DNA of 64,000 nucleotides, from NCBI GenBank assembly GCA_028821475.1, contig JAPPGB010000030.1:1-64000 (forward strand). Direction: 5' to 3'. This stretch comes from Spirochaetaceae bacterium. GTDB lineage: Bacteria > Spirochaetota > Spirochaetia > SZUA-6 > Bin103. Within the stretch, counting starts at the first letter, position 1. Every line of letters begins with the position of its first letter. The notes beneath the pieces are model-generated. The model saw only the letters and a program-made list of their open reading frames with translations. It was not told where the DNA came from and did no database searches. Positions 1 through 15,150 of the stretch are shown piece after piece. The position numbers and the translations under genes were made by a program.

Positions 1-51
1 TGCCGGGCGGGATTCGCACCCGCTGAGCGACAGCGCCTTTCCACGGCGCAC
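1..51 (-). mobile_element. 5' end of a group II intron (continues outside window)
   Basis: Read on the minus strand, a GTGCGCC start follows the codon run GGG-TAT-AAC-ATC-CCA-TTT-GC of the peptide-binding-protein gene. GTGCG is the group II intron 5' consensus. The next bases form a GGCGC-rich stem and a hairpin CGGG-TGCGAAT-CCCG, a motif I recall from domain I of bacterial group II introns. Homology to the paralogous binding proteins stops exactly here: paralogues continue PF-(D/E)-x-W-P-E-E, whereas this frame turns into Arg/Cys-rich nonsense. The rest of the intron lies beyond position 1. The assignment is inferred from the boundary and the short motifs. Confidence 0.55.
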
Positions 52-1229
52 GCAAATGGGATGTTATACCCCTCGACCCTCACCCACCCGTGAGGTGTCG
101 CGACTCCTATACCCTTGAAGTAGGTATTGTTGACGGCCTCGGAGTCAATTGCCATCTGCATCGCCTTGCGCACTCTCAGGTCGTCAAAAGGCGGATTGAT
201 AACGTCAAAACCAAGAGCAGTCTCCGACCGCCCGAACACATGCCACTGCACGATCTCAGGGTTAGTGCGCTTGAGGCTTTCTGCCTGGTCGATTGATGTT
301 ATTGAAGATGCCCCGGCATGACCCGTATAATCAAGCTGACGCGAGCGTAGCGCCGCCAGAATTGTCGCCGTTTCAGGCATGATCAGGGTCCTTATCTTGT
401 CAGTATAGGGCAAGCGGTTCTCCGGGTATTTCTCGTCGTGGCCCCAGTAGTCAGGATTCCTTTCGTAGGTTATCGAGCTTTCCTCGACCCTGTCAGTCAG
501 CATATAGGGCCCAGTGCCGACCAGGTTCCTCCAATCTTTGACGTCGCCCTGCTGTTTGATCACCTCGGGGGGTAACATGGTGCCGGTTTGGGCGAGGGCG
601 AGGTTCATCAGCGCTTGGAGGCTCGGCTCCTTCAGCTTCACGACAACCGTCCACTCGTCGGTGGCCGCTATCGATTCGATTGGCAAATCCTTGATCCAGT
701 CCCTGGGACTAGGTTCGGTGAAGCCGCTGCCGAGACCGGTCACACGATGAAGGTTGTATTCGATGTCCGAGGCATTCAGCTCCCGACCGTTCATCGGCGC
801 CTTATCGTGCCAGTGAACACCCTGACGGATGTGGAAGATTATCGTGAGTGGGTCGGGTTGCTCCCAGCTTTCAGCCAACTGCCCTCTCAGGGGAATTCCC
901 AGCACCACGCCTGTTGAAGTGAGGCTATTTTGGTCCCTTGGTATTGCCCAGTCCGCAATGCCCAGCTTCTCTACCACAGGAGCGACAAGATTTCCCGGCC
1001 CGTGCTGGAACCAGGTGTCGGCAACCGGATAGTCGCCCTTTATAGCATGGGAAAATGTCCCGCCATACTCCGGCGCCGTCACCATCTTGCCGGTGGTTGG
1101 GTCCATCACCATTTCCTGCTCCATGGCGGCTGCCGGCTCCTCTTCTGCGGCAGCTGCCCAGAGGCCGGCTGCGGTCAGGACCAGGACCAACGCAACCGCG
1201 AAGGTCCTTGTGACTCGTACAATATTCAT
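52..1229 (-). CDS. Peptide ABC transporter substrate-binding protein, 5' exon only (interrupted by intron)
   Basis: First 392 residues of an SBP_bac_5 (DppA/OppA-type) periplasmic binding protein. A signal peptide (MNIVRVTRTFAVAL, hydrophobic core, AAA-type cleavage region) is followed by an acidic/Ala linker and the tag DPTTGK shared by the other binding proteins of the window. Then come the family landmarks YGGT, LAESWEQPDPLT, HIRQGVHWHDKAPMNGREL and FDDLRVRKAMQMAID. The reading frame is open throughout and breaks off at residue 392 at the intron junction, so the C-terminal third lies outside the window. It starts at an ATG; upstream GGAG is seven bases away. If the intron splices, the protein may still be made; otherwise it is a pseudogene. 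Confidence 0.8.
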
Positions 1230-1256
1230 ATGTAACTCCGTATGGGTTGATTCTTT

Positions 1257-1298
1257 GAGAGCATTGCCGGAGCGGATTGCCGCTCCCTGGCTGCTCTC
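1257..1298 (-). promoter_or_regulatory. Leader hairpin beside the ribosome-binding site
   Basis: Outer arms GAGAGC/GCTCTC enclose a perfect seven-base-pair inner hairpin (GGAGCGG-ATTG-CCGCTCC, 1269-1286). The structure ends about 28 bases before the ATG at 1229. The same position in the two paralogous leaders (50297-50339 and 55070-55108) carries an analogous GAGAGTG/CACTCTC stem, so the structure is conserved while its sequence changes. A role in translation control is inferred. Confidence 0.5.
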
Positions 1299-1356
1299 GC
1301 GCCCGCAACGCGGGACAGCCAGTCCGGGTAGCCGAGGGTGGTTACCCACCCCAGGC

Positions 1357-1400
1357 CCCCACAGTCCCGTGCGAGCGCAATTGACGCACACGGTTCCTCA
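1357..1400 (-). ncRNA. Group II intron domain V
   Basis: Immediately after the maturase stop the minus strand reads GAGGAACCGTGTGCG, a short loop, then CGCTCGCACGGGACTGTGG. This is the typical domain V hairpin, with a long CCGTG-GCG stem. It supports the group II assignment independently of the protein. Confidence 0.6.
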
Positions 1401-2738
1401 AATCGCAGCCTTCGCTGCGTAGATAGAATGAACGACACGTGCCGCCGGCAGGGGGTAACGTGCCAGCAGCCGAGCAAAGCATGCCCAGTTGAGACGCCGG
1501 CCACCACGACGATTCAGCCACTTCATCCAGAGGTGTTTCACCGTGTAGTAGAACAGCGCCAAAGAGCGCGCATTACCCGTGAGGCCGTAGTACCCTTAAT
1601 GGCCTAACAGCTTGCGCCGCAGGACCGCTTGCTGTCCCCGCAGCGGCGCATGGCGGTTGCGCTTGCACCAGGTTGATACAGCGCGTAGCGCGCGGGTAAT
1701 CCGGTCGCGCGCGGTCTTCCGCTGCACGATCCATTTCCCCGTGCGCGAGCGTCCCCAGTAGTGGGTGAACCCCAGAAACTGGAAACTCTCCCGTCGTGCT
1801 CCCGCCCTGTCCCCTTCCGGTGGTTCAAACCGCAGCATCTCGGTCTTCTCCTCGTGCACGGTCAGCCCGTATTTCGCGAAACGCTTGGGCAAGGTGTTCA
1901 ATACCCGCTCGGCATCGTGCCGATCGGTGAATACCATTACCGCGTCGTCCGCAAATCGTACCAGGAATGCCCGTCCCCGCAGGTGCCGTTGCACTACCTC
2001 GGTGAACCACTGGTCGAGTACTTCGTGCAGGTAGATATTGCTCAGTAGCGGAGATATCCCTCCACCCTGTGGCGTCCCCTGCCCCGCGTGTGAGACAGCG
2101 CCATTCTCCATGACGCCGGCTTTCAGCCATTTGCCAATAAGCCGTGTGATCACTCCATCTCGCATCCGCTGTCCGAGAATCGTTCGTAGCTGAGTGTGTG
2201 ACAGGGTGTCGAAGAACTTGCGTATGTCCAGGTCTATCACACTACCTCCCCCTTCCCGCATCGTCTGTTTCCAGAGTGCATCCAGCGCCGTGTGCGGCGA
2301 TCGCTCGGGCCGAAAGCCGTGCGAACAGTCCAAGAAGTCCTGCTCGTACAGAGGCTCAAGCAGCATCTGCACCGCCCGCTGGAGTATCTTGTCCTCGAAA
2401 GTCGGTATCCCGATGGGCCGGGTTTCTCCGCTTGTCCCCTTCGGTATGTGCACCCGCCTCACCGGCGGTGCCCTATACGTACCTGCCTTCGCGCGCTCCA
2501 GGAGCGATTTCAGGTTCTGCCCCAGGTTCTCTTCGTACTGCTCGGCGGTCTGTCCATCGACGCCAGCTGCACCGTCCTTCCGGGTGCGCCGGTAGGCCTC
2601 GTGCAGCCACTCCAAATCCATATGATGCGCCAGCGACGTAAACGCCACTTCCGGGTGGATTCTCGCGTTCTCTGCTATCCGCTGCTGTTTCGTTAACACG
2701 TTTCCAGATTCCATTGCACCTTCCGTGTTTCCCCGCAT
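1398..2738 (-). pseudogene. Group II intron reverse transcriptase/maturase with a premature stop
   Basis: LtrA-type reverse transcriptase. RT landmarks are present in order: RPIGIPTFEDKILQ (about 107-120), FRPERSPH (142-149), VIDLDIRKFFD (167-177), GTPQGGGISPLL (221-232), the catalytic FADD (262-265, replacing the more usual YADD) and QFLGFTHYW. The frame stops at a TAA after LRRKLLGH (1596-1598). Translation past that codon in the same frame gives GYYGLTGNARSL...ARVVHSIYAAKAAI up to a TGA at 1398, the usual maturase (domain X) end. The TAA therefore replaces the Tyr expected in HYGYYG, a single nonsense mutation. There is no HNH endonuclease domain. The product would be an RT lacking its maturase tail unless the stop is read through. 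Confidence 0.85.
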
Positions 2739-3460
2739 CGGTTCTGCGACTCGACGCCCTCCTTCCCTCCACCGGGTCCGGTGCGGCGACCGTTCCCCGG
2801 CTTCATCGGTACTATGGGGGCGCTAAGACTTCTCGCTGCCCTTCTCGCCGCGCTTCGTTGCCTTCGCTTGGCGATACCATGCCGGCACCCGTCTGTTCGC
2901 TCCTGTGCTTCTTCGGATGCCCTTCCGCACAGGCCTGGACTTTGGTACCCCGGCGTCCCTCCGGCTCTCCCGTCATGGAAACAACGAGACCTCCCAGGTT
3001 CCTGGGCCACCCGCTCCACATCTGCCCTGCTCTCCGACCCCGGCCGGGCCTCCGTGCCAAGCCATTGTTTTCGGCACGTCGGTGCTGCCCCCGCTCTCAG
3101 AACGACGAAGGCCCCAGCAATTATTCTTTCGTGGCTCAATGACACGGCTTCTGTGGTCGCGGTCTACGCTTCGTCCCCGGGGTCGCCCCCGACCAACGCA
3201 AGACTCGCTTCCGGCTGCCGGCTACGCTCTACCGGGTGGGATTGGCTACCCACAGGGTGGCTACGACAGGTTTCTGATGCATACTTCACATCTTCCTCCC
3301 CTCCCAGGCTTGGCCTGGCGCGATCAGAGTCAGATTCCCGGCGTGCGCGGCGTGTGACTCAGCCGGGTTCACCCGGGTCACACCGCGCGCGCGTGCGGTT
3401 CTTTGCGTATGATGGGCACCTCCGATGCGCCGGGACACCGGCGGGGTGTGGTGAACGTGA

Positions 3461-11112: not shown

Positions 11113-14100
11113 TCACACGGCGGGTTGCTGCCGGCCGACGTCGATTACGACAACCGAAATCATGCGCCGCTCGTCGCGGGTGAGCGTGGCTTCGAGGCGA
11201 GTCCGCAACTCGTTTGGGGATGTCGGCAGAGCACCGGTCGGCGGCTGCTGCGTAGCGTCCTTTCCGAACCAGAATACCAGGTAGATACCGACTCCGTCGG
11301 TGGCCGGATCGCAGGTGTACTGGCCGATCAACTGGCTCCTTGCGGCACTCCAGAGATCCCGATGGCGGTTCTTCTTGATTTCGATTGGCACGTGAAAGTC
11401 GCCGTACGCAATGCGGATGTCTGCCCGCTTGTCGTTCGCGTATTGTCCTTCCGGCTGCGCATCCAATCCCTCTTGAAGGCGTTCCCGCAGATCGGACAAC
11501 AGCGCGTCGCGGCACTGATCTTCATGCTTGGGGGTAGGTTCCTGCCCATGCGGCTCGTTCCAGTATTGGCGCCAGTCGTCCGTGTTTTCGGTGCGTATCT
11601 TGCGCGCCAACTCGTGCAACCGGTCAACCAGCAACGCGCCCAGATCGGCGGCGTTGGCGGGGCGGCCGCCATTCAAGGTGCGGCATACCTGCTCGACTGC
11701 AGGATGACGGAAGGCCGCGTCGCGACGGTTAACGCGCTGGCGGTCGCGAGCGTTTACCAGCACTTGACGCCAGTCGTTCAGGGCCGAGTCCGCGACAAGC
11801 CCGGCAAGCTCCTCGCCGGCCAGCCGATCGGCACGGTCGGCAAGCACCCGCACCATCTGCCAAACGCACTTGAATACGTCGCGTTCATGCCCGTAGACAT
11901 CTTCTGAGTCATCCACCCGGCCCCAAGGCACCGCCGTGCGGGCGAGCAACTGGACGAACGCCGCCAGAGTACCCGCAGGAAGGTCGTCGAGCAGACATCC
12001 GGTCCGGACCAGGAAGCCCGCCAACTGAGAAACTCGGCGGTCTCGCCGTCCAACGAACTCGCGCAGACCATCAAGGTGGGCGTCGTTGGGGGTGGCTACC
12101 ACACGGACGGCCATCCAATGCACGCGTTGGGAGACGCTCAGGCTGCTGCGCGACAGTTTCTCCGCTATCAGTGCCACGAACTCCGTGCGATCCGCGTGCA
12201 GGACAGCGGCCACCAACAGCTCGTCGAGCGTAGTCATTGGGCCCGGCTTCACCGCGATGTGGGAATCGGCTGCGGACAAGGGGAAGGCGCGCAACGCCGC
12301 CAATACCACGTGCCGGGCCAGTCGAACGTATTCTCCTTTGGCGAGATTGTAGGCGACCGTATCGTCATAGATATGGGCGCCGAGCTTGACCGACATGCAT
12401 CGCAGGAGTATCTCGGCGGCAGTGCTGACACTTGCATCGAGCAAACGTCGTCCACGGTCTCGCGAATTCTCGACGAACGTACAGAAATGAAACGCGAGCG
12501 CCTGACGCAACCGGCGGTCGCTCAGTGTCAGAGGATCATCCAGTTCATCGATACCCGCCAGAAACGGCAGCGCGATATTGTATTGTTCGCGAGATTTCAG
12601 CAGATCGATGATTTGGCACGGATCGGGGATGTCGTCCCTGAACGGGGTGCCACGGAGACCAGCCAACGTCACTTCGATCAGACTGCTGTTACCGTGAAAG
12701 AGATTCCTCATTCGCTCCTCAGGGTTGTCTCCTTCCACGTCTGAGAACATGCCGAAGTATGCTTTCGCGAGCTCTTGAAGCAACCCTGCACTGCACCTGT
12801 TCTGGCGCAAGGTATCGGCCTGTGACTCGACGAGAGCAACGAAGCTGCGGCGTCGGCCCGCACGCTCTTGCCAATAGCTTCGTCGCCTGCGATGACTGTC
12901 CCAGTGATTGTCTTGGAGACGATACACACGCCACTTGTCCCAGCAGTTTCGCAAGAACTCATTGGTGCGGGCAGCCTTCTCCAGCTCTTCGACGGACGGC
13001 TGGTGATCGCCTTCCTGCCTCGACGTCGACCGGCACGACTGCGTGAAGAAGAACGCGGCCTTGCGCTGGTCGGTTGCGGCCACGGCCTGATCGAGAAACC
13101 AGCGGCCGATGTCGGTTGGCAGACTGACGCCATACAACAAGTCGCGGATGGTGGAGTCCACGAGCTCGCCCGAAGCCGTGTTCACGTATCGGGTGACGAC
13201 CGCCTTCTGGACCGTCGGGCGCTGTTCGAGCCACGCTCGGATGCGCCTGACCGCACCGTTTTGCATCCGCATGTCTCGAAACGGGTCCACGTGAAGCCAA
13301 TCGAAGAGCCGCTCGCCGGTCAGCCGATCTCCGCACCCCTCGAGCCCCCGTGCCAGGAGTACCGCCGGCAGCTCTTCCAGGTGGCGGCTCTCCAGGATCG
13401 GCTTCAGGCTGCACCCTCGGGCCACCAACTGATCCAGAAGACTCGCGACCTGGGCGTCTGAAGAGCGCCTTGGAAGATCGGATATCCAGAAGTCCCGATA
13501 GTCCGCGGCATGCTGATTCGCCGACTGGCTCAGGTGGTCCCAGATCCGGGCAGGGGGAATGCGGTCAGGGTAGAGGTGGCGCAAGGCCACGGCGGTGAGC
13601 TCGTCCTCCCAATCTCTCACTCGGTCCGCGGCGATGTTCGACAGGAGTTGCTCAAGCGTGTCGGCTGCGACGTTGGGCTGACCGCAGTTGTGCACGTATG
13701 CTTGCAGCGCCAGCGCCGGAAACTGAAGTTGTCGACCATTCCCGTACACGATACGGAGCAGGGAGTCGGCCATACCTGGCAGCCGCTCGCCGTGCGCGAG
13801 GGCGCTCAACACGAACATCACGAAACGTACCGGGTGCTCGTCGTGGGATTCCAGAATCCCTTGTAACACGGGCTCCATGCCGGGAGTAGCGACGCCGCCG
13901 ATGGTCGCGGCGGTCCAGTCGACGGAGTCGAGCCGGTCGACTTCTCGACTCAGCGCCTGCAGCAGGGTGCGCTTGAGGTCGATCGAAAGCCCTTGGGCAT
14001 CGCCGTACGAGGCAACCGCGACAGGATCCCGGTCGATGAGTTCCGTCCGAGCGTCGTCGCACAGCACGGCGAGCCAAGCGGACAAGCCACGCAAGCTGGT

Positions 14101-15150
14101 GACTACGCCGCCGTCGCCCCCCGTGAGCAGCGCCGTGACGCGGCGCGCCGGAAGACCTGATGATACGACGCGCGCGAGGTGCTTGGCGCCGACGAACTCG
14201 GCGATATGACGATGAACGGGGACAAACCGAGCTTCCGACTCGGGCACGAACAGCCTCGTAGCCAGGGCCAAGCGCAAGAGCTGGGGTTGGTCGTACCCGA
14301 ACCTGCCGACGTACAGGTAGTCATCGCTGGCTCGGTCACGTTCCACGGCGCAGCCGGACGCGCCGGAGACGAGGAGCAACGCGCACAGCCGCCCGGCAGC
14401 ATCCAGAACATCGCGCACCTCCGGTTGAGACCCGATGTGCGCGTGCTCTCCATTCTCTTCGGTAGCCAGGAGCGACGTGGCGCTCTCGAACAGCTTCAGA
14501 CGGCTCGCCGGCCACTGGTTCTCGCGCGCCACCACGTCCGCCAGCAGGCGCAGGTTGAGGGGATTCTTCATCAGACCCTCCATCCCCCTGTCGCGCGCCC
14601 CCTGGACGAATCCGGTAGGGTCCGGGATGTCCTCACGGTCGGTCAGGATTCGGGTGACGCTATCATCGGTCAACGGGTCGAGCATCAACAACGCTACCTG
14701 TGGGCCCGCCGGTACAACAGCAGACAGGCGCTGTCGATCTGGTTCACCGCGCCAGTCAGCGGCCCGGCACGAGAGTCGAAACCGCGGCCTGCCCAGCTTG
14801 TCGAGGCGTCTGCGGATTGCATCGAGCGGCACGCGTGGGTCGGGTAAACCGGCACGCACCTCATCGAGCGCGTCAATGAACAGCGTCCTATCGCGCCACT
14901 CAGGGTGGTCACAGGGATCGAAGGTTACGAAGTCACGCGCGTCGATCGCGAGCGCGGTGTCGCCGAGCGCCTCGCGTTCGGCTTGGAGTGCGGTGGTCTT
15001 GCCGGCGCCGGGGTCGCCGAGCAGCACGTATGCCGGAATGTCTCCCCACGCCTTCAGTGGACGCGACTGCGACGGCACTCGCCGGTCGGAGCCGGCCGGC
15101 GCAACCTCGGTACAGGTACGGGCGACCGGATTCACCGTTCCTCGAACCAT
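11113..15150 (-). CDS. NACHT-type STAND NTPase with C-terminal PD-(D/E)XK nuclease domain
   Basis: A 1345-residue protein. Walker A GDPGAGKT is at residues 45-52 and Walker B LFIDALDEV at 90-98, the DxxDE pattern of NACHT NTPases. About 1000 residues of helical, Leu/Arg-rich sequence without a recognised catalytic motif follow, presumably a sensor or scaffold. The C-terminus has a PD-(D/E)XK arrangement: Asp1244, Glu1257-x-Lys1259 (PIEIKKN) and Gln1273. The order NTPase-sensor-nuclease differs from Avs proteins, whose effector is N-terminal. The ATG overlaps the end of the upstream DUF4143 ATPase gene by 19 bp, so the two are translationally coupled. Antiphage abortive defence by DNA cleavage is the likeliest role, inferred from architecture and location. 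Confidence 0.75.
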   Translation of the reverse strand: MVRGTVNPVARTCTEVAPAGSDRRVPSQSRPLKAWGDIPAYVLLGDPGAGKTTALQAEREALGDTALAIDARDFVTFDPCDHPEWRDRTLFIDALDEVRAGLPDPRVPLDAIRRRLDKLGRPRFRLSCRAADWRGEPDRQRLSAVVPAGPQVALLMLDPLTDDSVTRILTDREDIPDPTGFVQGARDRGMEGLMKNPLNLRLLADVVARENQWPASRLKLFESATSLLATEENGEHAHIGSQPEVRDVLDAAGRLCALLLVSGASGCAVERDRASDDYLYVGRFGYDQPQLLRLALATRLFVPESEARFVPVHRHIAEFVGAKHLARVVSSGLPARRVTALLTGGDGGVVTSLRGLSAWLAVLCDDARTELIDRDPVAVASYGDAQGLSIDLKRTLLQALSREVDRLDSVDWTAATIGGVATPGMEPVLQGILESHDEHPVRFVMFVLSALAHGERLPGMADSLLRIVYGNGRQLQFPALALQAYVHNCGQPNVAADTLEQLLSNIAADRVRDWEDELTAVALRHLYPDRIPPARIWDHLSQSANQHAADYRDFWISDLPRRSSDAQVASLLDQLVARGCSLKPILESRHLEELPAVLLARGLEGCGDRLTGERLFDWLHVDPFRDMRMQNGAVRRIRAWLEQRPTVQKAVVTRYVNTASGELVDSTIRDLLYGVSLPTDIGRWFLDQAVAATDQRKAAFFFTQSCRSTSRQEGDHQPSVEELEKAARTNEFLRNCWDKWRVYRLQDNHWDSHRRRRSYWQERAGRRRSFVALVESQADTLRQNRCSAGLLQELAKAYFGMFSDVEGDNPEERMRNLFHGNSSLIEVTLAGLRGTPFRDDIPDPCQIIDLLKSREQYNIALPFLAGIDELDDPLTLSDRRLRQALAFHFCTFVENSRDRGRRLLDASVSTAAEILLRCMSVKLGAHIYDDTVAYNLAKGEYVRLARHVVLAALRAFPLSAADSHIAVKPGPMTTLDELLVAAVLHADRTEFVALIAEKLSRSSLSVSQRVHWMAVRVVATPNDAHLDGLREFVGRRDRRVSQLAGFLVRTGCLLDDLPAGTLAAFVQLLARTAVPWGRVDDSEDVYGHERDVFKCVWQMVRVLADRADRLAGEELAGLVADSALNDWRQVLVNARDRQRVNRRDAAFRHPAVEQVCRTLNGGRPANAADLGALLVDRLHELARKIRTENTDDWRQYWNEPHGQEPTPKHEDQCRDALLSDLRERLQEGLDAQPEGQYANDKRADIRIAYGDFHVPIEIKKNRHRDLWSAARSQLIGQYTCDPATDGVGIYLVFWFGKDATQQPPTGALPTSPNELRTRLEATLTRDERRMISVVVIDVGRQQPAV

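What the first reader, a model, noticed from the sequence alone, without database searches (positions are those of the whole stretch)
1..60. Group II intron 5' end inside the coding sequence of a peptide-binding protein
The binding-protein frame is open for 392 residues, then homology stops within one codon of a GTGCGCC intron-like start. Paralogues continue PF-x-x-W-P-E-E at this point. Bacterial group II introns usually avoid housekeeping coding sequence, so a hit in a transport gene means either splicing in vivo or a fresh knock-out.
Basis: partly seen in the sequence, partly recalled or inferred. Interest (0 to 1): 0.65.

Follow-up and report, generated by a model that had tools for sequence, protein, structure and literature searches.

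The report
Mobile intron splits a transport gene
A gene for a peptide-binding transport protein in a Spirochaetaceae bacterium is cut by the front end of a mobile group II intron, and the sequence stops there because several near-identical copies of that intron broke the assembly; this is a real but ordinary mobile-element insertion.

Summary
The binding-protein frame (window 1229-54, minus strand, 392 codons) ends two bases before a group II intron 5' end (window 51-1, minus). The same sequence starts an intron at three other contig ends of this genome, and a close version starts a full-length 1,993-bp intron in a sister species, with D1-D4 RNA, a reverse transcriptase/maturase and a domain V. 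Window position 1 is the end of contig C30, so this copy's domain V and second exon cannot be read. The break is a repeat break: intron bases held plus exon bases shared with other copies sum to exactly 55 at all four 5' ends here and to 127 in the sister assembly. Of 51 paralogues, 50 continue with the W-P-E-E block. None of five 3' intron ends resumes it; one resumes the last 45 residues of another binding protein, in frame. Splicing versus knock-out cannot be decided. The gene is one of at least 59 paralogues, so losing one would be cheap. Filed as a new insertion of a known kind. More interesting in passing: a pseudoknotted leader RNA, not in Rfam, precedes many of these genes.

The parts
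54..1229 (-). 5' exon: first 392 codons of an SBP_bac_5 peptide-binding protein
   Evidence: Open frame, PF00496 169.6 bits, 61% identical to the closest paralogue in the genome
52..66 (-). 5' exon end TAACATCCCATTTGC; its last bases TTGC are shared with two other insertion sites and TGC with all four (IBS1-like), TAAC at -15 to -12 (IBS2-like); EBS partners not established
   Evidence: the EBS/IBS search was inconclusive
1..51 (-). 5' end of the group II intron (nucleotides 1-51), cut by the contig end
   Evidence: Same sequence at C29, C81, C129; full-length relative L058:7397-9389; RF02003 positions 1-25
1325..3323 (-). a second, different group II intron, lying between the two halves of the leader of the same gene; ends approximate, no GUGYG start at the leader junction
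   Evidence: RF02005 at 3245-3028, 125.8 bits; boundaries from intact leaders elsewhere; RT 29% identical to the RT of the first intron's relative
1596..2738 (-). reverse transcriptase of the second intron; in-frame TAA in the maturase part (LLGH*GYYGLTGN)
1256..1324 (-). 3' part of the leader RNA of the binding-protein gene (pseudoknot core)
   Evidence: model R2, 77.6 bits, E 1.7e-16

Best explanation
A copy of a multi-copy group II intron, whose relatives encode an RT/maturase without an endonuclease domain, has inserted in sense orientation after the second base of codon 393 of an SBP_bac_5 gene. By established knowledge of such introns, the excised intron RNA with its maturase reverse-spliced into the DNA at a site recognised through short exon sequences, and the RT copied it in (inferred). 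The contig ends here because at least four copies share the same 55-mer at the exon-intron junction and the assembler could not resolve them (shown by the k-mer arithmetic). Whether the transcript is spliced to restore the protein is not shown.
For: The junction falls at intron nucleotide 1 in four own and four sister-species exons. The sister intron has RF02003 D1-D4 (86.5 bits), RVT_1 plus GIIM, TIGR04416 311.8 bits (cut-off 300), and a domain V match of 39.5 bits, just under the gathering score of 40. Plasmid relatives carry ltrA, 51% identical at protein level to the sister RT. Intron bases held plus shared exon bases equal 55, 55, 55, 55 in this genome and 127, 127, 127 at the three broken sister 5' ends; the sister assembly used SPAdes with k up to 127 (PMC5649159, passages). 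Five contig ends carry the intron 3' end. For the sibling copy between C129 and C112 the two exon reading frames meet in phase, and the C112 part matches SIR2_2 from profile position 39.
Against: Domain V, RT and exon 2 of this very copy are not in the assembly. Own-genome searches found no full-length copy of this intron: RVT_1 hits only at C30 (the second intron) and a fragment at C183, domain V only at C97 below the cut-off. The EBS-IBS pairing search was inconclusive: best four of six pairs in every exon, reached by 5 of 100 shuffles. The C129 exon piece alone gave no Pfam family.
Confidence: 0.88

Rival explanations
1. Only a 5' fragment of the intron is left here, with unrelated DNA beyond it, so the gene is a dead remnant.
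For: Truncated bacterial intron copies are common (PMC4424553, passages), and only 51 bases can be read. A diverged copy lacking its 5' part exists at C97.
Against: The readable bases are identical in four copies, and four 5' ends are balanced by five 3' ends, as expected for whole copies.
Confidence: 0.04
2. Intron-intron recombination between two binding-protein paralogues: C30 (residues 1-392) joined through the intron to C162 (last 45 residues of another paralogue), deleting the middle.
For: The C162 3' exon encodes an SBP C-terminus (E 3.5e-14 to L184) in frame with C30, followed by an ABC permease. No other 3' end fits C30.
Against: In-frame agreement has a one-in-three chance. The C162 end holds 52 intron bases and shares only two exon bases with a seen copy (sum 54, not 55), which suggests a further unseen copy, so the partners of both ends may simply be missing.
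Confidence: 0.06
3. Chimeric assembly: the binding-protein exon was falsely joined to intron sequence.
For: The join lies at a contig end in a repeat.
Against: The junction is exactly at intron nucleotide 1 with the TGC exon end seen at the other sites, and the k-mer arithmetic is exact.
Confidence: 0.02

Closest known systems
Group II intron with annotated ltrA on Buttiauxella sp. 3AFRM03 plasmid pBTX_57 (NZ_CP033075.1) and Xenorhabdus sp. TH1 plasmid (NZ_CP147735.1)
   Same: 88% identity over intron bases 1-51, RF02003 D1-D4; the Buttiauxella RT is 51% identical to that of the sister-species copy
   Different: Plasmid hosts in Enterobacterales; the copies here sit in or next to genes of a Spirochaetaceae MAG
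GsI-IIC and related endonuclease-minus group II intron RTs (PDB 6ar1, 7uim)
   Same: Nearest solved RTs (E 3e-44 and 3e-43); no endonuclease family found by Pfam in the sister RT
   Different: Class not determined here; terminator or attC targeting, typical for class C, was not tested, and the exons seen share short TGC or TAAC-like motifs instead

Membership tests
Group II intron | 5' end GUGYG | tested here: met
   GTGCG at window 51-47, minus strand
Group II intron | Domain I-IV RNA | tested here: inconclusive
   This copy: RF02003 positions 1-25 only, 15.7 bits, cut by the contig end. Sister copy: full model, 86.5 bits
Group II intron | Domain V | not testable with these tools
   This copy is not assembled past base 51. 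Sister copy: RF00029 39.5 bits, gathering score 40, E 1.4e-05
Group II intron | RT/maturase ORF | tested here: inconclusive
   Not assembled for this copy. Sister copy: TIGR04416 311.8 bits, RVT_1 and GIIM
Group II intron | Exact insertion with exon 2 resuming | tested here: inconclusive
   Not found for C30 among five 3' ends; for the C129/C112 copy the frames meet in phase
Group II intron | Splicing activity | not testable with these tools
   needs RNA
Class C (IIC) intron | No endonuclease domain | tested here: met
   Sister RT 446 aa with RVT_1 and GIIM only; this copy's RT is not assembled
Class C (IIC) intron | Insertion after terminators or attC | not tested
   exons only read by eye
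SBP_bac_5 | Pfam PF00496 above cut-off | tested here: met
   169.6 bits, residues 115-377

The most novel reading that the evidence does not exclude
The identical introns lying in sense in paralogous binding-protein genes (C30 N-terminal 392 residues, C162 C-terminal 45 residues, in the same phase) act as shuffling points, by DNA recombination between introns or by intergenic trans-splicing as reported for Ll.LtrB (PMC6248898, passages), and produce chimeric transport proteins in a genome with dozens of paralogues.
Probability: 0.04. Interest if true: 0.7.

Novelty: new member of a known kind. Interest (0 to 1): 0.25.

Why it matters
It shows a multiplied group II intron that lies in coding sequence at several sites, sense and antisense, in a sponge-type spirochaete lineage, and it shows how such introns break short-read assemblies at exactly one k-mer. 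It also corrects a possible misreading: that the gene appears cut short here is mainly an assembly consequence of the intron, not evidence about splicing.

Tried and rejected
An IS or other transposon end was considered and dropped: relatives carry RF02003 RNA and ltrA. Exact viral-contig scan: no match. Pairing C30 with each 3' end: C112 pairs with C129; C23 probably with C81 (by eye); C74 opens 24 bases before an AAA_14 ATPase start; C96 opens inside a Transposase_31 (YhgA-like) gene; C162 opens with the C-terminus of another binding protein; none resumes W-P-E-E. EBS/IBS search inconclusive. RF02005 fragments beside leaders at C61, C15, C22 and C183 were compared with the window's second intron; the strong matches between them are the leader. 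Paper searches listed no report of this insertion or of the leader RNA; only listings and the passages named were seen.

Full report
What is there. On the minus strand of the window, a frame opens at 1229 and runs 392 codons to ...GYNIPF at 54, followed by GC and then GTGCGCCGTGGAAAGGCGC... at 51 to 1. The protein is SBP_bac_5. The genome holds at least 59 scored matches to it (169 candidates, 59 scored) and the same-genus genome G001 holds 58. Of 51 aligned paralogues from the two genomes, 50 continue with the E/D-W-P-E-E block at this point; seven further fetched loci were dropped from that alignment because their longest ORF did not match.

Position 1 is a contig end. The window is contig C30:1-64000 of a 183-contig assembly (contig length 90,038). 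The 51-base pattern was found at two places, C29 17081-17131 and C30 1-51; its first 45 bases also at C81 6-50 and C129 138600-138644. All four lie at contig ends. The reversed-pattern control found none.

It is a group II intron. In G001, identified as MAG Spirochaetaceae bacterium bin103 through matching contig lengths and described from the sponge Aplysina aerophoba in PMC5649159 (passages), one copy is complete: L058:7397-9389, 1,993 bp, RF02003 86.5 bits, domain V 39.5 bits, just below the gathering score, and a 446-aa RT/maturase with RVT_1 and GIIM and no endonuclease family. Three further G001 contig ends carry its 5' end and one its 3' end. Two Enterobacterales plasmids carry relatives with annotated ltrA; the Buttiauxella RT is 51% identical. 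The window fragment itself matches RF02003 1-25 weakly, cut by the contig end.

Why the contig ends. Intron bases held plus exon bases shared with another copy sum to 55 at C29, C30, C81 and C129, and to 127 at the broken G001 ends C4, C32 and C49. The G001 assembly used SPAdes with k up to 127 (PMC5649159). This is the signature of a de Bruijn graph branching at a repeat. The k of 55 for the window's own assembly is inferred. On the 3' side the sums are 55 (C112), 55 (C23), 54 (C162), 54 (C74) and 33 (C96). The sums of 54 suggest further copies whose ends are not in the assembly (inference).

Where the siblings sit. C129 and C112 read in phase across the site, and the C112 part is SIR2_2 from profile position 39; the C129 part alone gave no Pfam family. 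C81 and C23 look like two sides of a repeat-protein gene in antisense (by eye; Pfam hits for C23 below cut-off). C29 ends antisense in an NMT1-like gene (19.7 bits, cut-off 20.5). C96 opens inside a Transposase_31 gene. C74 opens 24 bases before an AAA_14 ATPase start. C162 opens with the last 45 residues of a binding protein followed by a permease. The G001 full copy appears intergenic (by position). A review states that most bacterial introns lie outside housekeeping genes (PMC4424553, passages; also PMC6003770, abstract start in listing), so several coding insertions in one genome are notable, but none of these is plainly a housekeeping gene.

Mechanism. Retrohoming or retrotransposition of the intron RNP into DNA is inferred from the family. 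The own exons end in TGC (four of four), three of them in TTGC; a TAAC lies within -17 to -12 in six of eight own and sister exons (read). A search for the complementary EBS was inconclusive. Splicing of this copy is untested. Antisense siblings cannot be rescued by splicing of the host gene's mRNA, so the element does tolerate knock-outs.

Surroundings. A second, different intron (RF02005) splits the leader of the same gene at about 3323-1325; its RT has an in-frame TAA. Intact leaders elsewhere show the split. The leaders form two related classes with a helix, often an inner hairpin, and a pseudoknot whose 3' strand lies just upstream of the ribosome-binding site. In alignment A1 (13 sequences), 4 of 8 pseudoknot pairs have changes on both sides and 91.2% of cells pair, against 42-54% when slid. 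A2 (17 sequences) gives 92.1%, against 31-53% when slid. I named the structure after looking at these sequences, so it leans in its own favour. Models from these alignments find the leader at 40 of 58 binding-protein loci searched (23 by R2, 18 by R1, one shared; 30 of the loci were in the training sets) and at two untrained places in the window, 55152-55069 and 50381-50298, directly upstream of two more binding-protein genes. No Rfam family reached E 1 in 12 such loci. In 394 genomes of the class R1 matched 3: this one (11 matches), G001 (5) and one marginal (strict filters; the two window copies are not among the 11).

Noticed in passing
window 1324-1256 (-), 50381-50298 (-), 55152-55069 (-): Pseudoknotted leader RNA just upstream of SBP_bac_5 start codons, with compensatory changes, at 40 of 58 such loci in this genome and G001, no Rfam 15 family at E up to 1 in 12 loci, and found in only 3 of 394 genomes of the class, one of them marginal. 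Candidate translational riboswitch or protein-binding leader.
   Followed up: partly
window 3323-1325 (-): A second group II intron splits this leader upstream of the same gene; its 5' border lacks GUGYG and its RT ORF (2738-1596) has an in-frame TAA in the maturase part.
   Followed up: partly
C61:7862-8081, C15:23491-23684, C22:1793-1932, C183:4873-5092 (own genome): RF02005 intron 5' fragments lie about 62 bases from the leader on the opposite strand at four loci, apparently copied together with leader and gene.
   Followed up: partly
L059 (C97:2103-3087, -): A diverged copy of the intron (87% identity, second half only) with domain V below the Rfam cut-off.
   Followed up: no
window 11113-15150 (-): 1,345-aa ORF with a P-loop-like GDPGAGKT near its N-terminus; a large NTPase by eye.
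   Followed up: no
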